DNA from: an uncultured Lachnospiraceae bacterium
Lineage (GTDB): Bacteria > Bacillota > Clostridia > Lachnospirales > Lachnospiraceae
Assembly (NCBI GenBank): GCA_944384125.1
Contig: CALWSF010000003.1
Location: 42,651-106,650, forward strand
Direction of reading: 5' to 3'
DNA length: 64,000 bases
Shown here: piece after piece, positions 50,611 through 64,000 of the stretch
How positions within the stretch are numbered: the stretch's first letter is position 1
Layout: each line of letters starts with the position of its first letter
Made by a program: the position numbers and the translations under genes
The notes under the pieces: generated by a model
Seen by the model: only the letters and a program-made list of their open reading frames with translations
The model's database searches: none
Told to the model about the DNA's origin: nothing

Positions 50611-51504
50611 TTATTTTGCAATAATTTCTTTTGCCATCTGAAGAAGCTCCTCCGGAGTTCCCCCTTCTTTCATTGTTATCAGACAATAGGTAAGTCCGTC
50701 ATCCTCCCAGAATGCGCCAATGCTCGTTTTCCGTTCAGCCTTATCAGTACCATAGCTTATCTCCAGCTTTCCCTCTTCTTCAAGTTTCAGATCCGCTTCA
50801 TCCGGTTCCTGATCCGGGGGAAGAAACAGATAATCCATGACAGAGACCTCTATTTCAACATCCTCATATGTTTCCGAGAGAACGGCCGGGTATGCCTGGC
50901 CCGCTGCTCCCTCCAGAGGATCGGAAATATCCAGGAAATATTCGCCGCTGTAATCAATGGAAATGGACGGGTATGTGCCTATTTCCACACCATTCTCATC
51001 CTGCGCGGAAACATTCACGTCAAAACCTCTCACAAATTTCGCGCCGTTGGAAAACTCATCCACTGCCCTGGCCTTTTTATACAGGCTATCGCTGGCCTCT
51101 ACCTCCTGTGCATTTTTGTAGTCCACCTGATCTGTTCTGGTTGAACTGGAGAGGGAAGCTATTTTTCCCGATGCAAACGCAGTTCCCACTCCCAGTACTG
51201 CGATAGCCGCCGCTGCTGCCGCAACTTTAATTTTACGATATCCGGACTGTTCCATTATCTTTCTCCTTTCATCAATCGAACTGTGTATGGAATTTAAAAG
51301 TTCCTTTTCTTCCTTCTGAGTCAGCCCGCCGCTTCCGGCAAGTTTCCGGATCTCCTCCCGAAGCAGGTTTTCTTCTGAGACATACTTCTCTTTTCCATGC
51401 ACCTGTGCTTTATCCATTCTGTCCATTTTCCCGCCGGCTCCATCCTGCATATCCGCTCCCGTTATTCCTTCGCCTCCGGACTGTGTCTTCTCATACCATC
51501 TCAT
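50611..51504 (-). CDS. Membrane protein, putative anti-sigma factor of the adjacent ECF sigma
   Basis: 297 residues: a cytoplasmic N-terminal part (about 1-90) with a Ser/Glu helical segment, one transmembrane helix (about 92-111, IKVAAAAAAIAVLGVGTAFA) and an extracytoplasmic domain of about 185 residues resembling DUF4367-type sensors (FWEDDGLTYCLIT near the end). It overlaps the sigma gene by 14 bases with AGGAGG before its ATG. Location and topology suggest it holds the sigma factor at the membrane; the sensed signal is unknown. Confidence 0.75.
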   Translation of the reverse strand: MRWYEKTQSGGEGITGADMQDGAGGKMDRMDKAQVHGKEKYVSEENLLREEIRKLAGSGGLTQKEEKELLNSIHSSIDERRKIMEQSGYRKIKVAAAAAAIAVLGVGTAFASGKIASLSSSTRTDQVDYKNAQEVEASDSLYKKARAVDEFSNGAKFVRGFDVNVSAQDENGVEIGTYPSISIDYSGEYFLDISDPLEGAAGQAYPAVLSETYEDVEIEVSVMDYLFLPPDQEPDEADLKLEEEGKLEISYGTDKAERKTSIGAFWEDDGLTYCLITMKEGGTPEELLQMAKEIIAK

Positions 51505-52108
51505 ATTCCCGCCTCCTTTTCGTCTCCGAACTTCCCTCTTTTAAATTATTTAAATATACTCTGAGGTTTTCTCTTCCCTTATGAAGCCGCGATTTGACTG
51601 TGCCTTCCAGGCTTCCCGTAATGCGCGCAATGTCTCTGACTGAAAGCTCATTATAATAATAGAGCACAATTACCGTTCTCTGTTTAACCTCCAGGGATGA
51701 AACTGCTTCGCGAAGCTTCTCCTGTTCCTCTCTCAGAATAACTTCTTCCAGAGGCTGAAGAGTGTCTCTGTCAATCTGTATCCATTCGCCGCTGTATTTC
51801 TCCCCGTCCTGCTCCAGCATCTCATCAAATGAGCAGTCCTTCGGTCTGCGCTTTACATATCTCCAGGCAGTACGGACCATTATCCGGAAAAGCCAGTTTT
51901 CAAAAGCTCTCTCATCGCGGATTGTATCCTTTCTCAGAAAACATTTCACAAATGTTTCCTGAACAATATCCTCACTGTCCGATCTGCTGCCGCTGATTAA
52001 ATATGCCGCGCTGTACAGCTTTTTCACATATATCTCATACAGACTGTCAAAGGCCTCTTCATCTCCGTTTTTCATCCTTTCTACCAGCCCTGTGATGACG
52101 TCATTCAT
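51491..52108 (-). CDS. ECF-family RNA polymerase sigma factor
   Basis: 205 residues. Region 2 spans about 20-90 (DEEAFDSLYEIYVKKLYSAAY, SDSEDIVQETFVK, FENWLFRIMVRTAWRYVKRR) and region 4 about 130-185 (LEVKQRTVIVLYYYNELSVRDIA, GSLEGTVKSRLHKGRENLR). A basic tail of about 15 residues follows. First of a two-gene operon with a membrane anti-sigma candidate. A TATAAT lies about 45 bases upstream of the start without a clear -35. Confidence 0.93.
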   Translation of the reverse strand: MNDVITGLVERMKNGDEEAFDSLYEIYVKKLYSAAYLISGSRSDSEDIVQETFVKCFLRKDTIRDERAFENWLFRIMVRTAWRYVKRRPKDCSFDEMLEQDGEKYSGEWIQIDRDTLQPLEEVILREEQEKLREAVSSLEVKQRTVIVLYYYNELSVRDIARITGSLEGTVKSRLHKGRENLRVYLNNLKEGSSETKRRREYEMV

Positions 52109-53603: not shown

Positions 53604-54257
53604 CTATGCAATCCACCACGCACCATCTGCCGCCTGGTACAGGGATCCTGCCTCTTCAGAAAGCTTTCTCCCCATATAATCTCTGACAATTATCCTGTTA
53701 TAATATTTATACTGATCGGTTGCGCAGTTCTTTTCCTCGTCCCACCCCTCTTCAATCCAGGCCTCAAAATATATCTTACGATCTTCTATAAGAACAGCCG
53801 TTTCATTGCCCGCTGCAGTGAAAGATATTTTTTCAGGGTAATAGCATTCAAAATTTTCATCCTGGCTGACAATATGCACAGGGTTGCCTGTAATCCGCAG
53901 ATTATACAGATTGACTTCTTCCGCATTCAGTTCTGTAATCTTTTCCGGGTTCTGTTCCGGAATATACCGGTATAAGATAATTTTCTTTTCATCATAATCG
54001 CCCTGTAAGAAATAATAAAATCCCTCCGCGTAAACGGGATCACTGTAAACGACATTTCGTTTTTTTGCGAACGGCCTGTATACATTGCCCGTTTCAAAGT
54101 CAAAAAACATGATAACAGACCCCTGATATCCTCCTGATTTCGACCATTCAATCAGATCAAAAAAATCATTTGTATCTGAATGGGCAAAAGCCAGTCTGTC
54201 CTGGCCTGCTATTTTTTCTATGTATCTTCCCTCAGTCTCTCTGAAGCGTCTTATCAT
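53604..54257 (-). CDS. Hypothetical protein, unrecognised
   Basis: 217 residues, soluble, rich in aromatic and acidic residues, with repeating beta-hairpin-like units (GSVIMFFDFETGNVYRPF, EGFYYFLQGDYDEKKIILYRYI). The pattern suggests a small beta-propeller or beta-sandwich. AGGAGA precedes the ATG by 9 bases. It lies 49 bases behind the SGNH gene and 57 before the next orphan, so it may be in the MBOAT/SGNH operon. Function unknown. Confidence 0.65.
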   Translation of the reverse strand: MIRRFRETEGRYIEKIAGQDRLAFAHSDTNDFFDLIEWSKSGGYQGSVIMFFDFETGNVYRPFAKKRNVVYSDPVYAEGFYYFLQGDYDEKKIILYRYIPEQNPEKITELNAEEVNLYNLRITGNPVHIVSQDENFECYYPEKISFTAAGNETAVLIEDRKIYFEAWIEEGWDEEKNCATDQYKYYNRIIVRDYMGRKLSEEAGSLYQAADGAWWIA

Positions 54258-54306: not shown

Positions 54307-55242
54307 TCATTTTTCCTGAAGCCACTTTACCCAGTCAGCATAATATTTCCCCAGTATATGAGAACCATCCACTGAGTATTCTTTTGCCAGATTTCCGCTT
54401 CCATCATCGAATTTTTCATTGATATCAATATATTTACAGTCCATCTCCCGGCTGATTCTTTCTATTTCATCATTTACTTCATTGATTTTCCGGTTATTAA
54501 ATATATTGCTGGACGCAGACTGCTTTTCCGTGACATGCAGATTTGCTCCCAGAACAATTACTGCCTGCGGCTGCATATCCCTGATCTTTCCCACCGCTTC
54601 CCTGTATTTTTCCGCGATCAGATCCATCGAATATCCCAGCTCATTGATTCCCAGCATCAGATGAATCGTCTGATAACTCTTTTGTGACAGAATCTGCTGC
54701 AGTGTTACCCTCTGTCCGCCGGAATTTACCTCACTGCTCCAGAGATTAAATACGCTCATCCCGCTGTCCGCGAATACGTCAGCGCTTTCAAGATGTCCGT
54801 ATTCATGCAGCCCGACGGTTCTGGAGTCTCCGATGAACAGTGTCCCCTGGAATTTATCAGGAAAAAGTTTCTCCGTTTCCACTGCTTTTGTTTCTTCCGG
54901 TGTATCCGTCTTCGCCCCGTCTGTTCCTGCAAGGATATCTGCTCCGCTTTCAATCGTCTCAGCAGTTTCTTCTGCCCCTCCGGTTACCTGCTCTGCTGTG
55001 GATGACTCCGTTTCAGCTTTTGTCGTATTTGCTTCCCGTTCAGGTTTTTCCTCCTGATATACGGCATCTGTCTTCACAGTTTCTGTTTCCGAAGCAGCCG
55101 GAATTTTCCCGTCTCCTTTTTCCCGGTCTGCAAATAACTGAAATGCCGCTCCCGCATTTTCATATATAACAGTTCCGTTTGTCCATAACAGGTATGCTGT
55201 CAGGCTGACAGACAGAAACAAACTGTACCAGCACCGTTTCAT
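54307..55242 (-). CDS. Secreted/anchored SGNH (GDSL) hydrolase, putative O-acetyltransferase partner
   Basis: 311 residues: an N-terminal signal/anchor helix (about 6-22), a long Glu/Thr/Ala-rich linker (about 45-125), then an SGNH catalytic domain with GDSRTVG (Ser 140), LGINELG (oxyanion Asn) and DGSH (Asp 292, His 295). It directly follows an MBOAT acyltransferase gene (25-base gap). This MBOAT plus SGNH pair is the design of PatA/PatB and AlgI/AlgJ systems, in which the membrane protein exports acetyl groups and the SGNH enzyme places them on an extracellular polymer. Hydrolysis instead of transfer cannot be excluded. Confidence 0.88.
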   Translation of the reverse strand: MKRCWYSLFLSVSLTAYLLWTNGTVIYENAGAAFQLFADREKGDGKIPAASETETVKTDAVYQEEKPEREANTTKAETESSTAEQVTGGAEETAETIESGADILAGTDGAKTDTPEETKAVETEKLFPDKFQGTLFIGDSRTVGLHEYGHLESADVFADSGMSVFNLWSSEVNSGGQRVTLQQILSQKSYQTIHLMLGINELGYSMDLIAEKYREAVGKIRDMQPQAVIVLGANLHVTEKQSASSNIFNNRKINEVNDEIERISREMDCKYIDINEKFDDGSGNLAKEYSVDGSHILGKYYADWVKWLQEK

Positions 55243-55267: not shown

Positions 55268-56680
55268 TCAGAAGCGAAAATATAAAAACGGGTCATCCAT
55301 TCCCATCTTCATACAATAAACGCATCCCCAGAAAACTGCCAGCAGTACCAGTGCCGAGGCGGCAGAATTCTTCCACCGGCTGTAAATTTTTCTGGGTACC
55401 GGTGTCATAAAAATAATACCGGCGCACAGAGATACGGCATAAATCCCGGCATATTTGAGATAGTCCCCGGCAAAATAAACATATTTTTCGTTTTGTCCGA
55501 AAAATGGAAACAGACGGTAAAAATAGATCATTATCTGATTTAAGTCTGTCACGGCAAATATCATCCAGGTCAGAGGGATCACAAACAGCATATAGAGATG
55601 CCCCAGGAAACGTATCCGCGTCAGAATCTTTCCGAATCCCAGTTTCTCAATAAATATCAGGAAAAACAGCACAAGCCCCCACAGGATAAAATTCCAGCTT
55701 GCCCCGTGCCAGAATCCTGTCAGAACCCAGACTGCCAGAAGATTCCGGAATGTTTTAAGTTTTCCCTTCCTGTTTCCGCCCAGAGGAACATATACATAGT
55801 CACGAAACCAGTTTCCCAGCGTCATATGCCATCTTCTCCAGAATTCCGTTACCGAAAGCGACATGTACGGATGCGCAAAGTTGTCCGGAAGATGGAATCC
55901 CATCATACTTCCCAGCCCCTTTGCCATAAGAGAATAGCCGTAAAAATCAAAGTATATCTGCAGGCTGAACGCAATAAGGCCCAGCCATGCCAGCTGAGTC
56001 GAAATGCTCTCAAATCCGATTGCCTCCACATTTTTCCACAGTCCGCCAATCTGATTGGCAATCAGAACCTTTAAGCCCAGTCCTATTGTAAATTCTCTCA
56101 GTCCCTCCTCAATTCCCGAAAGAGAAAGCTTCCGTCTTCCAATCTGATTTCTCACAGATGAATACGTAACAATCGGCCCGGCTATCAGCTGCGGGAACAT
56201 GCTGATATACATTCCGAAATTAACAAAGGAGCGCTCACAGGAAACATCTCTCCTGTAAACATCAATCAGATAGGATACTGCCTGAAAGGTATAAAAACTG
56301 ATTCCTATGGGCAGTGCCGGTTCAAACACAGGTATTTGGGCGGATATTCCCATCCATGCCAGAAGCTGTCCCAGATTCTGAAGCAGAAACCCGGAATATT
56401 TAAACAATATCAGCCAGAAAAAATTATAAATACAGCCGGTTACCAGCCATTTCTTTCTTTTGCTTTTCCTTCCTGAAATTTTCAGACCGATTCTGTAATT
56501 TACCCAAATCGAAGCCAGAAAGAGCAGCAGATACAGAGGCTGGTCCTTTACCCCATAAAAATAAAACAGCACACTTCCTGCAAAAAGGCAGAGATTTTTC
56601 CATCCGGAGGGACATATCACATAGACAAGGAAAAAAACAGGCAGAAACCTGAAAATAAAATCAATACTGCTGAAAACCAT
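55268..56680 (-). CDS. MBOAT-family O-acyltransferase (PatA/AlgI/DltB-like)
   Basis: 470 residues with about 10-12 helices. The N-terminus (MVFSSIDFIFRFLP) is typical of the AlgI group; conserved core motifs are PIGISFYTFQAVSYLIDVYR, FWRRWHMTLGNWFRDYVYVPLGGNR and FWHGASWNFILWG with the presumed catalytic His. It moves acetyl groups across the membrane for transfer to peptidoglycan or another wall polymer by the SGNH partner. No clear ribosome binding site precedes the ATG. An ECF-type promoter lies at 56750-56778. Confidence 0.92.
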   Translation of the reverse strand: MVFSSIDFIFRFLPVFFLVYVICPSGWKNLCLFAGSVLFYFYGVKDQPLYLLLFLASIWVNYRIGLKISGRKSKRKKWLVTGCIYNFFWLILFKYSGFLLQNLGQLLAWMGISAQIPVFEPALPIGISFYTFQAVSYLIDVYRRDVSCERSFVNFGMYISMFPQLIAGPIVTYSSVRNQIGRRKLSLSGIEEGLREFTIGLGLKVLIANQIGGLWKNVEAIGFESISTQLAWLGLIAFSLQIYFDFYGYSLMAKGLGSMMGFHLPDNFAHPYMSLSVTEFWRRWHMTLGNWFRDYVYVPLGGNRKGKLKTFRNLLAVWVLTGFWHGASWNFILWGLVLFFLIFIEKLGFGKILTRIRFLGHLYMLFVIPLTWMIFAVTDLNQIMIYFYRLFPFFGQNEKYVYFAGDYLKYAGIYAVSLCAGIIFMTPVPRKIYSRWKNSAASALVLLAVFWGCVYCMKMGMDDPFLYFRF

Positions 56681-56749: not shown

Positions 56750-56778
56750 TAGACTAACGAGCCGCCTGAAAAGTTGCA
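56750..56778 (-). promoter_or_regulatory. ECF sigma-type promoter of the MBOAT/SGNH operon
   Basis: TGCAAC (56773-56778, followed by TTTT), 18 bases, then GTCTA (56750-56754). The same -35, TTTT run and 18-base spacing occur before the sigma-V-like gene (60426-60454). AAC-type -35 elements are typical of ECF sigmas. No sigma-A promoter is evident here. Confidence 0.6.
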
Positions 56779-56799
56779 GTTTATTTAAAACAATTTATT

Positions 56800-58122
56800 T
56801 TATTTTGTTTTCCTGTTTCTTTTTCCTGAAAGAAATGCCAGTCCTGTAAGCGAGACAATAGCCTCCGCAGCCGGGAAAGACATCCACACTCCTGTAATGC
56901 CCATTGTTAAGGACAGCAGCACCGTAAGCGGAACGATAAGCACAAATCCCCTCAAAAGGGATATGATCTGTGCCGGCAGGGCACGCTCCATTGACGTAAA
57001 GTAAATTGAAAGAATAATATTAAAGCCGGCAAAAGGAACAGCGGTAAAATAAATGCGCATGCCGGATACGGCCAGCTCCCCCAGCTGTCTGTTATTCTCA
57101 CTGTTAAAAGCTGCAGCAATCTGAGCGGCAAATACTGAAATGAGCGGGTAAATAACCGCCGTCAGAATGACCACTGAACAGATGCCGAAAAAAAACGTAT
57201 ACCGGCTTTCATCCATACGCCCGCGTCCGTAAGAGCGGCTTAAGATAGGCTGCATTCCCTGCGCTACTCCCGTGTAGACAGCGATTACCACCAGAGAAAT
57301 ATTGGCAATAACTCCGTAAGCGGCTACTCCCGTATTTCCCTGAAGCCTGAGAATAATCATATTAAACACAACAATTACCAGACCGGATGACACTTCCGTG
57401 ACAAGAGACGGAAAGCCCAGAGAAAATATAGAGCCCGGCATCGCAGCCCTCCACTCTCCCCGTTCAGGTCTGAAATGATTCTTTTTCCGTATAAAATAAG
57501 ATGACATGACTGCCATGCTTATAAGTGGCGCCATACCGGTAGCCAGAACGGCTCCGAATATTCCCATGTTCATTGGAAAAATGAAAATATAATCCAGCAG
57601 AATATTTGACATGCTTCCGGTAAGCATGGCTGTCATGGACAGACGCGGATTCCCGTCGTTTCTGACAAAACAAAGCAAAATGTCATTGAGCAGAAAAGCA
57701 GGTGCAAACAGAAGAATAACCTTCAGATACGTTTCCGTCATGGAAAAAACAGCTTCATCCGCTCCCAGAAAAGAAGCAATTTTCTCAGACAGAAACAGAC
57801 CGGATGACATATATGCCGCCATAAAACAGACTGAAAGACAGAGGGTAACAAAAAAAACTCTGTTCCCGTTGGAATCCGCCCCCTGTCCTCTGAAAATAGC
57901 GTACCGTGTCGCGCCTCCCATTCCCAGCATCAGTCCGGTGCCATGTACAAGGCTGTAAACCGGTATCGCAAGATTAAGGGCGGCAAGTCCGTCTGCTCCA
58001 AGACCTGTTGCCACAAAAAAGGTATCGGCCAGTATGTAGCATGACAGCCCTATCATACCCGAAACATTCATCAGCGCATACCGAAGAAACTCTCCCAGAC
58101 ATTTTTTCTGCTCTGTTTTCAT
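56800..58122 (-). CDS. MATE-family efflux transporter (MepA-like)
   Basis: 440 residues, 12 helices, cation-driven exporter of organic cations. Typical blocks are ALMNVSGMIGLSCYILADTFFVATGLGADGLAALN-like helix 1-2 (split here as LADTFFVATGLG and GLAALNLAIP), GMGGATRYAI and VAQGMQPILSRSYGRG. Start at 58122, 8 bases after GGAGG. Its leader carries what appears to be a guanidine-IV riboswitch, so it probably exports guanidinium or a related compound. Confidence 0.93.
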   Translation of the reverse strand: MKTEQKKCLGEFLRYALMNVSGMIGLSCYILADTFFVATGLGADGLAALNLAIPVYSLVHGTGLMLGMGGATRYAIFRGQGADSNGNRVFFVTLCLSVCFMAAYMSSGLFLSEKIASFLGADEAVFSMTETYLKVILLFAPAFLLNDILLCFVRNDGNPRLSMTAMLTGSMSNILLDYIFIFPMNMGIFGAVLATGMAPLISMAVMSSYFIRKKNHFRPERGEWRAAMPGSIFSLGFPSLVTEVSSGLVIVVFNMIILRLQGNTGVAAYGVIANISLVVIAVYTGVAQGMQPILSRSYGRGRMDESRYTFFFGICSVVILTAVIYPLISVFAAQIAAAFNSENNRQLGELAVSGMRIYFTAVPFAGFNIILSIYFTSMERALPAQIISLLRGFVLIVPLTVLLSLTMGITGVWMSFPAAEAIVSLTGLAFLSGKRNRKTK

Positions 58123-58146
58123 TTTGTTTTCCTCCGTTTTTACAGA

Positions 58147-58240
58147 ACAAAAAACGCCATACATCCCCTCTCCTGAGACCTGCCGAGGGAATGTGTGACG
58201 TTTAACTCCCCTACCCGGTGGCAGGGGAAACGATTCTGTA
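58147..58240 (-). promoter_or_regulatory. Guanidine-IV (mepA motif) riboswitch with terminator
   Basis: The leader folds as CGTTT-CCCCT-loop-AGGGG-AGTT-AAACG, with loop GCCACCGGGT, followed by a long terminator hairpin (TCACACATTCCCTC against GAGGGGATGTATGG) and TTTTTTG. CCTGCC of the first hairpin can pair with GGCAGG in the terminator loop. These two hairpins with a loop-loop contact, the CCACCGGGTAGGGGAG consensus as I recall it, and the MATE gene match the mepA motif, shown to be a guanidine-sensing ON switch. Class assignment is from memory. Confidence 0.72.
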
Positions 58241-58253
58241 TTTTGTTTTTGAC

Positions 58254-58282
58254 AGTATATCATAAACAGATACAGGGGGCAA
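58254..58282 (-). promoter_or_regulatory. Sigma-A promoter of the riboswitch-MATE transcript
   Basis: TTGCCC (58277-58282), 17-base spacer and TATACT (58254-58259), with transcription starting about 8 bases before the riboswitch. Confidence 0.7.
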
Positions 58283-58293
58283 GAAAATTTCTG

Positions 58294-58938
58294 TTAATAA
58301 TTTATTCCTGAAACTGCCAGCTTGCCGTCCCGGACACCGAATACAATATTAGCTGCTCCGTTTTCCTCTGACAGAACAAAACCTGCCATGCTGGGAGAAA
58401 GGCTCGTTTCATCCGCTGATGCCACAGAATCTTTCAGGTCCTGTGTAAATATTTTCTCAGCTCCTATCGCCGTAAATTCATCACTGCTTGCTACTGTTTT
58501 TCCTCCCTCCGGAAATCCCACATACAGCGGATAAGCGGCCAGCTCAGCCAGAGCATCCAAATCTTCATTTGCGACTGCCTCTTTGACCTTTTTCCCGAAT
58601 TCAGCTGAAGCAGCACTGTCTACAGAAAAATTGTCATCATATCCTTCCTGAGCACTGTTTCCGGAACTGTCCGCGCTCTTTTCTTTAACGGCTTCCGGTG
58701 CTGCTTCCGCTTTTTTATCCTCTTTTTCCTCTTCTGTTTTGTCTGCGCCCTCTTCCTGCTGTTCCTCTGCTGTTTCCTCCGCGCTTTCAGTCTGCTTAGT
58801 TTCTTCCTCGGTGGTTTCAGTACTTTCTATCTCCTGTATCTCCTCCATCGGTGCAGTTTCCGAACTGCTCCCCTGACCGCATCCGGCCAGCGCCAGTGCC
58901 ATAATACCTGCTGCTAAAATCATTTTTCTTCTTTTCAT
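58294..58938 (-). CDS. Lipoprotein of unknown function, acidic linker
   Basis: 214 residues: lipoprotein signal with lipobox LAGC (Cys about 20), a highly acidic Glu/Thr/Lys-rich linker (about 28-100), then a compact C-terminal domain of about 110 residues (FGKKVKEAVANEDLDALAELAAYPLYVGF..., IVFGVRDGKLAVSGINY). The last part resembles small wall-associated domains that follow sigma-factor operons, but I recognise no family. It lies 71 bases behind the RsiV-like gene with no terminator between, so it may belong to that operon and to the same envelope-stress response. Confidence 0.8.
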   Translation of the reverse strand: MKRRKMILAAGIMALALAGCGQGSSSETAPMEEIQEIESTETTEEETKQTESAEETAEEQQEEGADKTEEEKEDKKAEAAPEAVKEKSADSSGNSAQEGYDDNFSVDSAASAEFGKKVKEAVANEDLDALAELAAYPLYVGFPEGGKTVASSDEFTAIGAEKIFTQDLKDSVASADETSLSPSMAGFVLSEENGAANIVFGVRDGKLAVSGINY

Positions 58939-59009
58939 TATACTTTCCCTTCCTTTTTCATCTTTTATAAAACAATGGTATCTCCATTTGCTTTATCTGA
59001 ATACTTTTA

Positions 59010-59897
59010 TCAGTTCTCTCCGGAGACAATCTCAAATTCCGGAGTCCCTTCCGAACCGGGTGCAATCTCATACTTTTCAAAAAACACAACCGGATTGCCT
59101 GATTCATTCATGTAAAAGCTCGTGTCTTCTGTAACGCCTTTAAACTCTTCCGGCCAGAACATTGCTCCCTCCGCCGTCCTCTCCTGCATCTGATTCCGGA
59201 TGCTTTCATCCGCAATCTGCGCATAATTTTCTCCCAGAACATCTTTCAGAGTGATTATCTTTCCTTCCTTCAAATCAAAATTATAATATCTCGTCTCACT
59301 GTAGGCAGATGTCCAGTTTTCTGCTCCCATCACAGCCAGAGACAGATACTGATCGGTCTGGGATTTTACCTCATACCATACCTTTATTTCAATGTTATGG
59401 GCCGCCCACTGCTCCTCTGTCCCTCCTGTATCGAGAAATGCCTGACGGTATTCCATGGCTCTCTCCTCTGCCTCTCTGGCGTATTCTTCACAGAGCGCAT
59501 GGATTTCCTCATTTACTGATTTCTCCAGCCCGCTGAAATCCTCATTTACCATTTCGATACTCGGAATATCTACCGCTATTTTCATATCCGTCGTTTCTTT
59601 TTCATAAGAGCGGAATGTCAGCACCCGGGCCACCGTACCTATTACCGGAATCGTACTGACCGTCTCTGCAAAAACAGTATTTGTATTCAGCATTACCATA
59701 AATACAACCGCCAGCGATGCGGCCGCAGCTGATACTCCTCTGGCAATACGTCTCCACCCTCTCCGGTTTATGACAGGTTTTCTCTCCGTTTTCCTGCGCA
59801 TATCCGCGCGCCTGATTTCCTGCATAACCCGTTCTGACAACTCGTCCGGTATAGGAATACTCTCATACCGTTTTTTCGCATTTTCCATCTGGTTCAT
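59010..59897 (-). CDS. RsiV-like anti-sigma factor (DUF3298 sensor domain)
   Basis: 295 residues: a cytoplasmic N-terminal sigma-binding part (about 1-50), one transmembrane helix (about 52-71) and an extracellular domain with the DUF4163/DUF3298 arrangement (IPSIEMVNEDFSGLEKSVNEEI, NFDLKEGKIITLKDVLG, FYMNESGNPVVFFEKYEIAPG). B. subtilis RsiV has this layout and is a lysozyme receptor: lysozyme binding triggers its cleavage and frees sigma-V. It overlaps the sigma gene by 4 bases. Confidence 0.88.
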   Translation of the reverse strand: MNQMENAKKRYESIPIPDELSERVMQEIRRADMRRKTERKPVINRRGWRRIARGVSAAAASLAVVFMVMLNTNTVFAETVSTIPVIGTVARVLTFRSYEKETTDMKIAVDIPSIEMVNEDFSGLEKSVNEEIHALCEEYAREAEERAMEYRQAFLDTGGTEEQWAAHNIEIKVWYEVKSQTDQYLSLAVMGAENWTSAYSETRYYNFDLKEGKIITLKDVLGENYAQIADESIRNQMQERTAEGAMFWPEEFKGVTEDTSFYMNESGNPVVFFEKYEIAPGSEGTPEFEIVSGEN

Positions 59898-60385
59898 ACA
59901 TCCACCTCCTGCATTACTACCTTCAATGCTTTTAAACCCCGGTACATCTTTGCCTTTACTGTATTTAAATTCATTTCCATAACCTGTGAAATTTCCCTAA
60001 GAGTCATTTCCTCATAATAATGGAGTTTGATAACGCTCTGTACATCCTCATCCAGGCGGGATATCTGTTCATAAAGACTGTCCTGTATCTCAAAACCAGG
60101 CTCTTCATAAACAATCTCTCTGTCCGCACCGTCCTCATCCAGGACAAATCTTTTATTTTTTCTCAGAAAAAGAAGACTCTCATTAACCAGTATCCTGTAA
60201 AACCAGGTTTTCATGGCATCCGCGTTTCTCAGTTCGCCGCTGTGCTCTAAAGCCCTGCAGACTGCATTCTGTACGACATCCAGCGCATCCTCCTGATTGT
60301 GCATATAGCTGAAAGCCAGCCTGTAAAATTTATTCTGATTTTCGATTATGTAAGCTGTCAGCTTATCGTATAGATCTCTTTTCAT
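59894..60385 (-). CDS. ECF sigma factor, sigma-V-like
   Basis: 163 residues, typical size for sigma-V. Region 2: NQNKFYRLAFSYMHNQEDALDVVQNAVCRAL and MKTWFYRILVNESL-type segments (about 15-80); region 4: LDEDVQSVIKLHYYEEMTLREISQVM, then NTVKAKMYRGLKALK. Coupled to an RsiV-like anti-sigma. The upstream TGCAAC-N18-ATCTA promoter suggests autoregulation. Known relatives respond to lysozyme and control peptidoglycan O-acetylation and teichoic acid D-alanylation. Confidence 0.92.
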   Translation of the reverse strand: MKRDLYDKLTAYIIENQNKFYRLAFSYMHNQEDALDVVQNAVCRALEHSGELRNADAMKTWFYRILVNESLLFLRKNKRFVLDEDGADREIVYEEPGFEIQDSLYEQISRLDEDVQSVIKLHYYEEMTLREISQVMEMNLNTVKAKMYRGLKALKVVMQEVDV

Positions 60386-60425
60386 CGTGTATTCCTCACA
60401 GTGACATTTTTCTCTTTCTATATTA

Positions 60426-60454
60426 TAGATTCATTTAAGAAGAAAAAAGTTGCA
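60426..60454 (-). promoter_or_regulatory. ECF sigma-type promoter of the sigma-V/RsiV operon
   Basis: TGCAAC (60449-60454, followed by a T-run), 18 bases, ATCTA (60426-60430). It matches the MBOAT promoter in -35, T-run and spacing. A TATAAT-like sequence overlaps (ATCTATAAT), so sigma-A could also act. Confidence 0.6.
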
Positions 60455-60462
60455 GAAGCAAA

Positions 60463-60500
60463 AACATTTTCTGCCCGGATGTGTGTCCGGGCAGAAATAT
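60463..60500 (-). terminator. Terminator after the repeat-domain protein gene
   Basis: TTTCTGCCCGGA pairs with TCCGGGCAGAAA (12 bp perfect) around a 6-base loop, followed leftward by ATGTTTTTG. It lies just upstream of the sigma-V promoter. Confidence 0.87.
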
Positions 60501-62843: not shown

Positions 62844-63197
62844 TTATTCATTTTTGTTTTCATCGTCCTGAGATTCCTCGTCACGCCAATATTCCCTGAG
62901 ACGAAAACAGAGAATCGTGACAATTACCCCCAACACAAACGCAAGAAATCCGATAATAACATACCCTGTCATATCACTTGCATATGACATGCTGGCCGCC
63001 GACTGAAATACGGTGTATTTCCCCGCCTCAAACCTGTCCGCAATATCCGGCATCGCCGCTGACAGCACAACAATCAGAATAAGGCTGGCAGCAACAGATA
63101 CCGCTGCAGCGATACGGCTGCGCTGTATTCTTTTCCTTCGTTCTAATTCTGTAATCCGACGTCTGACCTCCCTGATTCGATCTTCATGACTTCGCAC
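62844..63197 (-). CDS. Small two-helix membrane protein, putative anti-sigma factor
   Basis: 117 residues. The start is a GTG at 63197, overlapping the sigma gene's end by 14 bases, with GGGAGGG about 8 bases upstream. A charged helical N-terminus (RIREVRRRITELERRKR) faces the cytoplasm, followed by helix 1 (about 30-48), an external loop of about 30 residues and helix 2 (TGYVIIGFLAFVLGVIVTILCF), then an acidic tail. Overlap with the ECF gene makes it the likely sigma-binding partner. Unlike RsiV-type proteins it has almost no external sensor domain. Confidence 0.72.
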   Translation of the reverse strand: MRSHEDRIREVRRRITELERRKRIQRSRIAAAVSVAASLILIVVLSAAMPDIADRFEAGKYTVFQSAASMSYASDMTGYVIIGFLAFVLGVIVTILCFRLREYWRDEESQDDENKNE

Positions 63198-63729
63198 CGG
63201 AAATACCCTCCCTTTCCAGAAGTCCCCGTAGACTCTGCTTGCCGCGATAGACCATGTTCGTAATCTGCTTGACATTTTTCCCCATAACCTCGGCAGCCTC
63301 TGAATAACTCATATCTTCAAAATACGTCAGATAAAGCGCCTCCCGGTAACCGGGATTGAGCTGCTGCATACAGAAATGCAGAGTACGATTCTGCTCTTCC
63401 GTTTTAATAACCTCCTCTACCAGCATCCCGCTTTCCGGCTCTTCCTTAAGCTCATCCAGGCTGAAACAGGGGCGCAGCCTGCGCTTGTGACGCAGAGCCA
63501 TATGCCTCGCTGACTTATAAAGATATGCTTTAAGTCCTCCTGCCCGGATACGGGGTTTTTTGGTAAAAAGATATGCAAACACCTCTATCATCAGATCCTC
63601 TGCCTCATGAACATCGTGCAGATATCCGCTAATATATAAAATCAGAGGTGCGCCATATTTTCTCATCAGCTCATCAAGACCTTTTTCGTCGCCATTAAGG
63701 TAGCAGCAATAATATTCTTCATCCGTCAT
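63184..63729 (-). CDS. ECF-family RNA polymerase sigma factor (divergent)
   Basis: 181 residues, ATG at 63729 with AGGAGG 8 bases before. Region 2 (about 8-85) has GDEKGLDELMRKYGAPLILYISGYLHD, HEAEDLMIEVFAYLF and LKAYLYKSARHMALRHKRR; region 4 (about 125-178) has LNPGYREALYLTYFEDMSYSEAAEVM and KQITNMVYRGKQSLR. First gene of a three-gene operon with two small membrane proteins. The DLMIEVF in region 2.2 departs from the common DLVQEVF, so its regulon may be distinct. Confidence 0.9.
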   Translation of the reverse strand: MTDEEYYCCYLNGDEKGLDELMRKYGAPLILYISGYLHDVHEAEDLMIEVFAYLFTKKPRIRAGGLKAYLYKSARHMALRHKRRLRPCFSLDELKEEPESGMLVEEVIKTEEQNRTLHFCMQQLNPGYREALYLTYFEDMSYSEAAEVMGKNVKQITNMVYRGKQSLRGLLEREGISGAKS

Positions 63730-64000
63730 GCCTGCCGCCTCCTGTATTTTCAAATTCTATCCGCAATCCGAAAACTGTCGCTGTATTTTTATTATCGAGC
63801 CCATCACTAATAGTTTCCATCACGTTTATTATTATAACATATCTAATATTATACAGCCTGTCTCTGCAAATGTATATTGTTTTCTGTCCAAACGCCGGAT
63901 TACCGGAAAATCTTTCAGAATCTCAGTCGCCGCCACCCGTAAAACGGGCAATGTCGTCAACTTAAGTGTTATGCAGGTGTTTTTTTGAAATTCAATGGGA
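63730..64000. other. Gene-free upstream region
   Basis: No convincing gene. Two TATAAT -10 sequences read leftward toward the ECF gene (63831-63836 and 63848-63853), neither with a good -35. Short frames on the plus strand have no ribosome binding site or recognisable product. Confidence 0.5.

What the first reader, a model, noticed from the sequence alone, without database searches (positions are those of the whole stretch)
56750..60454. Sigma-V/RsiV-like pair and MBOAT/SGNH pair share an ECF promoter: a lysozyme-responsive wall O-acetylation regulon
Seen: TGCAAC-TTTT with exactly 18 bases to (A/G)TCTA occurs before the sigma gene (60426-60454) and before the MBOAT gene (56750-56778). Known: B. 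subtilis RsiV binds lysozyme and sigma-V induces the O-acetyltransferase OatA; PatA/PatB-type MBOAT plus SGNH pairs O-acetylate peptidoglycan. Inference: here the classical single-protein OatA is replaced by a split MBOAT/SGNH system under sigma-V control.
Basis: partly seen in the sequence, partly recalled or inferred. Interest (0 to 1): 0.7.

Follow-up and report, generated by a model that had tools for sequence, protein, structure and literature searches.

The report
SigV-type regulon drives envelope acylation pair
In a bacterium related to gut Lachnospiraceae, a stress sigma factor of the lysozyme-sensing kind and a two-protein machine that decorates the cell envelope carry the same rare switch sequence; comparison with related genomes supports a shared control circuit, but which of two related sigma factors is in charge, and which wall polymer is decorated, remain open.

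Summary
Observation confirmed. TGCAACTTTT with 18 bases from TGCAAC to (A/G)TCTA precedes both the sigma gene and the MBOAT gene; the pattern occurs four times in the 3.44-Mb genome. The other two sites precede exported-protein genes whose relatives lie in sigV operons elsewhere. Relatives support regulon membership in three ways: the promoter precedes orthologous MBOAT genes (6 of 28 others), MBOAT-SGNH lies inside a sig-rsiV-lipoprotein operon in two genomes, and MBOAT-SGNH-sig-rsiV occurs in five genomes of four genera. Seventeen of the 28 show neither link. The MBOAT ends in FLYFRF (FxYxxF acyl shuttle); the SGNH triad is intact.

Corrections: (1) A second SigV/RsiV pair (contig C21), not the window pair, passes the NCBIfam RsiV cut-off; its -10 class (GTCTA) fits the MBOAT promoter better than the neighbouring sigma's own ATCTA, while the -35 fits the neighbour. 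Which SigV drives MBOAT is unsettled. (2) Gram-positive MBOAT/SGNH pairs named in the papers seen act on teichoic acid, secondary wall polysaccharide or cellulose; a peptidoglycan target and replacement of OatA are plausible but unshown, and lysozyme as signal is inferred. The intervening MATE gene probably has its own promoter.

The parts
60426..60454 (-). ECF promoter of the sigma-rsiV-lipoprotein operon, TGCAAC-N18-ATCTA
   Evidence: same kind of element before sig in relatives
60468..60497 (-). intrinsic-terminator-like hairpin (12 pairs, T-run) after the upstream gene; would isolate the sigma operon
   Evidence: consensus match only
59894..60385 (-). ECF sigma factor (SigV1), 163 aa
   Evidence: Pfam Sigma70_r2/r4; best NCBIfam SigV 154.9 bits, below cut-off 190
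59010..59897 (-). RsiV-like anti-sigma factor, 295 aa: DUF3298 above cut-off; PdaC and DUF4179 matches below theirs
   Evidence: RsiV model 185 bits, below cut-off 250
58294..58938 (-). lipoprotein ('LIPO'), third gene of the operon, no Pfam match; related to the repeats of the C19 secreted protein
56750..56778 (-). ECF promoter of the MBOAT-SGNH operon, TGCAAC-N18-GTCTA
   Evidence: footprints in relatives
55268..56680 (-). MBOAT acyltransferase, 470 aa, ends in FLYFRF (FxYxxF acyl shuttle)
   Evidence: PF03062; DltB homology with FWHG motif; C-terminus
54307..55242 (-). SGNH protein, 311 aa, N-terminal membrane anchor by sequence, triad S140-D292-H295
   Evidence: PF13472; alignment A2; model mean pLDDT 80.6, ten-residue means of at least 96 across residues 131-310

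Best explanation
The MBOAT-SGNH pair is an effector operon of a SigV-type envelope-stress regulon. Resting state: SigV is held by membrane-bound RsiV-like anti-sigma factors. A wall-attacking ligand (by homology lysozyme) binds the outer DUF3298 domain, signal peptidase and a site-2 protease destroy the anti-sigma factor, and freed SigV transcribes its own operon (sig-rsiV-lipoprotein), MBOAT-SGNH, and on contig C19 a second lipoprotein and a secreted protein that heads an ABC-transporter gene set. MBOAT moves an acyl (probably acetyl) group across the membrane onto the Tyr of its C-terminal FLYFRF; the SGNH Ser takes it and passes it to an extracellular glycan. Two paralogous SigV/RsiV pairs (window, C21) probably share or divide these promoters. 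Shown: promoter sequences, homology, footprints, operon linkage, intact catalytic motifs. Inferred: sigma-promoter assignment, lysozyme as signal, acetyl as group, peptidoglycan or another wall glycan as target.
For: Four sites of the pattern genome-wide, each before an envelope or sigma operon. Promoter TG[AC]AACTT..GTCT 32-69 nt before MBOAT in 7 of 29 orthologues, own included (G003, G310, G391, G180, G311, G332). sig-rsiV-LIPO-MBOAT(70%, 69%)-SGNH in L214 and L219. MBOAT-SGNH-sig-rsiV in 5 of the same 29, four genera (L274, L278, L281, L282, L283); the three anti-sigmas scanned score 211-238 bits with the RsiV model. Relatives of the C19 lipoprotein sit near rsiV in 13 of 80 loci and in L060 and L066. 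Relatives of the C19 ABC genes (83-84%, 56-58%, 64-66% identity) follow rsiV directly in L063, L064 and L065, the last two 99.9% alike. The C19 secreted-protein orthologue in G003 has the promoter. FxYxxF ends 38 of 38 MBOATs; the triad is invariant in 32 of 32 SGNH; SGNH follows MBOAT in 29 of 29. Mechanisms: PMC5014341, PMC6066255, PMC12148441 (passages).
Against: 17 of the 29 MBOAT orthologues show neither the promoter nor a sig-rsiV pair next door; four of these genomes do have SigV pairs (G399, G150, G368, G105). Of the 7 promoter sites, G332's ends GTCTT, and no RsiV homologue was found there. FxYxxF also ends more distant MBOAT paralogues, and the pattern occurs 37 times elsewhere in the same proteins, so only its C-terminal place is telling. 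In L214 and L219 no such promoter precedes MBOAT, and in L214 a strong hairpin with a U-run (z -6.5; alike by eye in L219) stands between LIPO and MBOAT, so co-transcription would need read-through. Window RsiV and SigV miss the NCBIfam cut-offs; the Tyr261 equivalent is Ser. The SGNH profile finds esterases in the PDB, no named transferase. No expression data.
Confidence: 0.72

Rival explanations
1. Narrower version of the best explanation: the MBOAT-SGNH operon and the two C19 genes belong mainly to the second pair, SigV2/RsiV2 on contig C21; the neighbouring SigV1 controls essentially its own operon. Adjacency in the window is then a coincidence of two related regulons. (Compatible with the regulon claim, against the first reader's assignment.)
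For: SigV2-group autopromoters end in GTC in 11 of 11 with a motif, 6 without; in the 38-row clade that holds the window sigma ATC is found in 28 of 29 with a motif, 9 without; MBOAT and both C19 promoters have GTCTA, and all 7 MBOAT promoters have GTCT. G310 and G311 have the MBOAT promoter and only a SigV2-type RsiV was found. RsiV2 passes the NCBIfam cut-off (269.8 over 250) and matches the lysozyme-bound RsiV chain 5jen better (123.6 vs 72 bits), keeping P259 and Y261.
Against: Own-genome MBOAT and C19 promoters have TGCAAC like SigV1, whereas SigV2's own promoter has TGAAAC. G427 has MBOAT-SGNH in the SigV1 operon, and no second intact RsiV of this type was found there. C19-lipoprotein and LIPO relatives sit in SigV1 operons. 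16 of 69 SigV1-assigned autopromoters with a motif end in GTC (116 rows, 109 distinct sigmas).
Confidence: 0.45
2. The pair acylates a polymer other than peptidoglycan (teichoic or secondary wall polysaccharide, capsule), altering charge or access, as dlt does under SigV.
For: Dlt, PatA1B1 and CcsHI are the pairs named for such polymers in PMC12148441 (passages); SigV partly controls dlt in C. difficile (PMC9044953 passages); DltB is the only NCBIfam match (135.8 bits).
Against: The DltB cut-off is 375; no DltA, DltC or DltX-like gene recognised among the neighbours scanned; the shuttle motif is fused to the MBOAT. SigV regulons elsewhere also modify peptidoglycan (OatA in B. subtilis, PdaV in C. 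difficile; PMC9044953 passages).
Confidence: 0.45
3. The SGNH protein is an esterase that removes acyl groups rather than a transferase.
For: Best profile hits in the PDB are a sialate O-acetylesterase and other acylhydrolases (6njc 6.7e-17); none of the 44 sequences listed is named PatB, OatA, DltD or AlgX.
Against: SGNH gene next to MBOAT in 29 of 29 orthologues, N-terminal membrane anchor, acyl shuttle on the partner.
Confidence: 0.1
4. The shared motif is chance or a housekeeping element.
For: The pattern occurs 22 times in 60 other genomes, 4 of them in G030 without an RsiV homologue; one relaxed own-genome match lies antisense inside a small gene.
Against: Position before sigma genes in 65 of 65 and footprints before MBOAT.
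Confidence: 0.02

Closest known systems
Bacillus subtilis SigV/RsiV with OatA and dlt (PMC5014341, PMC6066255, PMC9044953; passages seen)
   Same: ECF sigma plus RsiV with DUF4179-like membrane-proximal part and DUF3298 domain, autoregulated; envelope-acylating effector
   Different: Effector is MBOAT+SGNH, not a fused AT3-SGNH OatA; window pair below curated cut-offs; lysozyme binding untested; second pair in the genome
Clostridioides difficile SigV (csfV) regulon (PMC9044953, passages)
   Same: Clostridial SigV/RsiV; dlt (itself with an MBOAT/SGNH pair) partly under SigV; no OatA
   Different: There the effectors named are PdaV deacetylase, LbpA and dlt; here a non-Dlt pair, two lipoprotein families and an ABC set
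PatA/PatB peptidoglycan O-acetyltransferase of Gram-negatives (PMC12148441, passages)
   Same: MBOAT with C-terminal FxYxxF and a conserved His, partnered with an extracellular SGNH protein
   Different: Gram-positive host; no Ape1-like gene recognised next to it; SGNH not matched to PatB by sequence profile; substrate unknown
Bacillus cereus PatA1/PatB1 (PMC12148441, PMC6174289, passages)
   Same: Gram-positive MBOAT/SGNH pair acting on the wall
   Different: Substrate there is secondary wall polysaccharide; no SigV control mentioned in the passages seen

Membership tests
SigV/RsiV | NCBIfam SigV equivalog cut-off (NF053879, 190 bits) | tested here: not met
   window sigma 154.9, best family; C21 sigma 162.7
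SigV/RsiV | NCBIfam RsiV equivalog cut-off (NF052658, 250 bits) | tested here: not met
   window 185; the C21 paralogue does meet it, 269.8
SigV/RsiV | DUF3298 outer domain above Pfam cut-off | tested here: met
   52 vs 24.1 bits
SigV/RsiV | Autoregulatory ECF promoter before sig | tested here: met
   (by sequence only)
SigV/RsiV | Lysozyme-contact positions S169, P259, Y261 | tested here: inconclusive
   aligned to A198, P280, S282 in the window protein; to G, P, Y in the C21 paralogue (counted by hand)
SigV/RsiV | Induction by lysozyme | not testable with these tools
   -
PatA/PatB-type peptidoglycan O-acetyltransferase | MBOAT with catalytic His and C-terminal FxYxxF | tested here: met
PatA/PatB-type peptidoglycan O-acetyltransferase | SGNH Ser-Asp-His triad in the partner | tested here: met
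   S140, D292, H295 invariant in 32 of 32
PatA/PatB-type peptidoglycan O-acetyltransferase | SGNH partner related to PatB by sequence or fold | tested here: inconclusive
   profile finds esterases, no chain named PatB at E up to 1; fold search never ran
PatA/PatB-type peptidoglycan O-acetyltransferase | Ape1 esterase in the operon | tested here: not met
   next gene 53604-54257 has no Pfam or NCBIfam match at E 0.01
PatA/PatB-type peptidoglycan O-acetyltransferase | Acetyl transfer to MurNAc | not testable with these tools
   -
OatA | AT3 domain fused to SGNH | tested here: not met
   the MBOAT matches PF03062 alone; own-genome PF01757 frames are 272-425 aa
Dlt system | DltB above NCBIfam cut-off with DltA/DltC/DltX | tested here: not met
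   135.8 vs 375; none recognised among the neighbours scanned

The most novel reading that the evidence does not exclude
Lachnospiraceae run two paralogous SigV/RsiV lysozyme-type sensors that trade one effector between them: a non-Dlt MBOAT-SGNH pair that does on the Gram-positive wall what OatA does in Bacillus. In some genomes the pair sits in the SigV1 operon, in others it carries a SigV2-type promoter, in others it is joined in one operon with a third SigV/RsiV-like pair. It would be a Gram-positive MBOAT/SGNH peptidoglycan O-acetylase, and a regulon in which the promoter class records the rewiring.
Probability: 0.3. Interest if true: 0.65.

Novelty: new variant of a known kind. Interest (0 to 1): 0.5.

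Why it matters
Gut Clostridia live with host lysozyme, and the papers seen say little about how those without OatA respond. A recognisable promoter plus recurrent operon linkage gives a testable list: MBOAT-SGNH, two exported-protein families without Pfam matches (LIPO, C19 lipoprotein) and an ABC set, all candidate effectors of one response. It also offers a natural test of how paralogous ECF sigma factors divide targets, because the -10 base (A or G) largely tracks the sigma clade.

Tried and rejected
MATE gene as part of the sigma operon: rejected as unlikely; it has a sigma-A-like promoter match of its own (58282-58254; such matches are frequent by chance) and a structured leader whose second hairpin is followed by a U-run. 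No Rfam family reaches its cut-off in the window (Guanidine-I 15.9 bits against 63). The only other MATE homologue over 38% identity in the loci held (L191) showed no alike leader by eye.

Relaxed promoter search added one own-genome site; it lies antisense inside a small gene and was dropped as chance.

Fused OatA: not found. Beta-lactam-type signal (SigP/RsiP of B. thuringiensis): considered; RsiP lacks DUF4179 (PMC8844934 passages), whereas the window anti-sigma gives a DUF4179 match below cut-off (25.2 vs 30.1), so it is less likely but not excluded. The SigP regulon does hold an SGNH gene (PMC8791391 passages). In E. faecalis SigV shares its promoter with pgdA and does not control oatA or dlt (PMC2836378, abstract and passages), so SigV effectors differ between species.

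Structure: the SGNH model was obtained; its fold search and the LIPO model never ran, as the machine was busy.
Full report
1. Observation. Both motifs are present at the stated coordinates with the stated 18-base spacing. The pattern TGCAACTTTTN{12,16}TCTA has 2 matches in the window and none in any of 100 shuffles, 4 in the 3,438,745-base genome and none for the reversed control. In 60 other genomes of the order it has 22 matches, 0.37 per genome, and the reversed control 8. Four in one genome has a Poisson probability of about 4e-4 (my arithmetic), but the counts are uneven: the incomplete genome G030 also has four and no RsiV homologue. What carries the case is position: the four own-genome sites lie 40, 69, 35 and 64 nt before the starts of a sigma gene, the MBOAT gene, a 208-aa lipoprotein gene and a 272-aa secreted-protein gene. 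With A allowed at the third base a fifth own-genome site appears, 23 nt before a second sigV gene on contig C21. Around 80 RsiV homologues, 65 of 65 sites of the wider element lie before sigma genes or remnants.

2. Anatomy. Minus strand: terminator-like hairpin (60497-60468), promoter, SigV1, RsiV-like, LIPO; then a MATE gene with a sigma-A-like promoter match and a structured leader; then the second ECF promoter, MBOAT and SGNH. The window anti-sigma keeps an AxA-like VFA site and the following IPVIGTVARVLTF stretch (F76, A77, P84 invariant in 12 of 12). In the alignment to 5jen this falls in the region that in B. subtilis shields RsiV from signal peptidase (PMC6066255, passages).

3. Other candidate members in the own genome. 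The C19 secreted protein has two repeats related to LIPO (E 1e-8 and 5e-8 for a single comparison). It is followed on the same strand by an ABC ATPase, a large secreted protein and a permease. Relatives of all three (83-84%, 56-58% and 64-66% identity) follow rsiV directly in L063, L064 and L065; L064 and L065 are 99.9% alike, so this is two independent cases. Relatives of the C19 lipoprotein lie in sig-rsiV operons in L060 and L066 and near rsiV in 13 of the 80 genome-contig loci (a 14th match, in L203, lies far off). LIPO-like ORFs of 150-260 aa and at least 30% identity were found in 51 of 80 loci, 50 of them on the strand of rsiV and after it or overlapping its end (L236 is the exception).

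4. Is MBOAT-SGNH truly linked to SigV? Three lines. The orthologue set is the 28 matches at E up to 1e-145 among 397 family genomes, own included, plus G003: 29. (a) Footprints: 7 of 29 have TG[AC]AACTT..GTCT 32-69 nt before MBOAT: own, G003, G310, G391, G180, G332, G311. G332's ends GTCTT, and no RsiV homologue was found in G332. In 5 of the 22 without a site the start was taken as called, and in one of these (L256) the gene runs to the contig end, so a site could be missed. Among 30 MBOAT loci from 61 relatives, mostly more distant, only the window and G003 have the TG[AC]AACTTT element close upstream. (b) SigV1 operons: in L214 (Eubacterium sp. S35_Bin1) and L219 (Lachnoclostridium sp. S30_Bin3) the order is promoter-sig-rsiV-LIPO-MBOAT-SGNH, MBOAT 70% and 69% identical; in L219 sig itself is broken; in L218 and L208 only pieces of MBOAT or SGNH were seen. 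Against full co-transcription, a strong hairpin with a U-run separates LIPO from MBOAT in L214 (z -6.5; alike by eye in L219). (c) MBOAT-SGNH followed at once by sig and an RsiV-like gene in five genomes of four genera (L274, L278, L281, L282, L283); the three anti-sigmas scanned score 211-238 bits with the RsiV model, cut-off 250. These five sigmas form a separate branch of the tree, and no motif was found before them. More distant MBOATs also lie near SigV2-type pairs in G003 and G007 (L136, L137) and near a SigV-type pair in G010 (L073). Against: 17 of the 29 have neither link.

5. Which SigV? Sigma genes with an adjacent RsiV-like gene were collected from 115 loci scanned (116 pairs, 109 distinct sigmas); 115 went into a tree (one short row dropped). 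Autopromoters of the SigV2 group end in GTC in 11 of 11 with a motif (6 without); SigV1-assigned ones in ATC in 53 of 69 (25 without). In the smallest starred clade that holds the window sigma (38 rows) it is ATC in 28 of 29 with a motif. MBOAT and C19 promoters are TGCAAC..GTCTA: the -35 of SigV1, the -10 of SigV2. In G180 the MBOAT promoter matches SigV2 on both counts; in G310 and G311 only a SigV2-type RsiV was found. Conversely G427, the genome of L214, has the pair in its SigV1 operon, and its matches to RsiV2 are the SigV1 anti-sigma itself (by coordinates) and a 75-aa piece. I read this as overlapping regulons with lineage-specific rewiring and do not assign MBOAT to one sigma.

6. Mechanism. 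The MBOAT ends in FLYFRF. In PatA a C-terminal FxYxxF Tyr is auto-acetylated and hands the group to PatB's Ser; in the Dlt system the separate DltX carries it (PMC12148441, passages). The motif ends 38 of 38 MBOATs examined, distant paralogues included; the same pattern occurs 37 times in the other 17,236 residues. So it supports the chemistry, not the substrate. The FWHG His aligns with DltB. SGNH residues S140, N200, D292 and H295 are invariant in 32 sequences; the model is confident across residues 131-310. The SGNH profile finds acetylesterases in the PDB and no named transferase; the LIPO profile finds nothing credible.

7. Signal and substrate. RsiV positions tested by mutation for lysozyme binding in B. 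subtilis include S169, P259 and Y261 (PMC5014341, passages; the single Y261A and P259A changes did not weaken binding there). Aligned residues are A198, P280, S282 in the window protein and G, P, Y in the C21 protein (counted by hand). Lysozyme sensing is plausible for both, more so for C21. For substrate, SigV in C. difficile controls PdaV and partly dlt (PMC9044953, passages), and the pairs named for Gram-positives in PMC12148441 act on polymers other than peptidoglycan. PMC6174289 (passages) lists OatA for Gram-positives and PatA/PatB for Gram-negatives and counts B. anthracis as not O-acetylating its peptidoglycan, while a 2011 title in its reference list claims such O-acetylation there. 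I put peptidoglycan near even odds.

8. Novelty. In the (capped) listings of nine paper searches I saw no title or abstract start describing SigV/RsiV control of a non-Dlt MBOAT/SGNH pair; passages of nine papers were opened, none read whole. SigV controlling an acylation pair is known through dlt, and split MBOAT/SGNH systems are known, so this is a new variant of a known kind. The check before this submission changed 'five genera' to four and added the hairpin, G030 and motif controls; I left the odds as they were, since the ABC linkage became firmer at the same time.

Noticed in passing
window 58120-58282 (-): MATE gene leader: sigma-A-like promoter match, two strong hairpins, the second followed by six U (z -5.6 against shuffles), a likely attenuator or riboswitch-like element with no Rfam match at the gathering cut-off.
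   Followed up: partly
window 50611-52108 (-): Another ECF sigma (best NCBIfam SigW, below cut-off) followed by a probable membrane anti-sigma that matches no Pfam or NCBIfam family at E 0.01.
   Followed up: no
window 62844-63753 (-): A third sigma-like ORF (189 aa) followed by a small protein with membrane spans; judged from the translation only.
   Followed up: no
L219:6728-6884: The sigma gene of this SigV1 operon is broken while rsiV, LIPO, MBOAT and SGNH stay open; in L218 and L208 only pieces of MBOAT or SGNH were seen.
   Followed up: partly
L062 and L141 (G022 contig C80): Two SigV/RsiV-type pairs on one contig, plus a further sigma-like ORF beside the first and an RsiV-like ORF beside the second.
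   Followed up: no
window 58294-58938; L005:9191-10009; L005:10186-10812: Exported proteins without Pfam matches that recur in SigV operons (LIPO-like ORFs in 51 of 80 loci; C19 lipoprotein relatives near rsiV in 13 of 80).
   Followed up: partly
L064 and L065 (G026 and G003): Over 13 kb 99.9% identical between genomes placed in different genera: recent transfer or a contaminated assembly.
   Followed up: no
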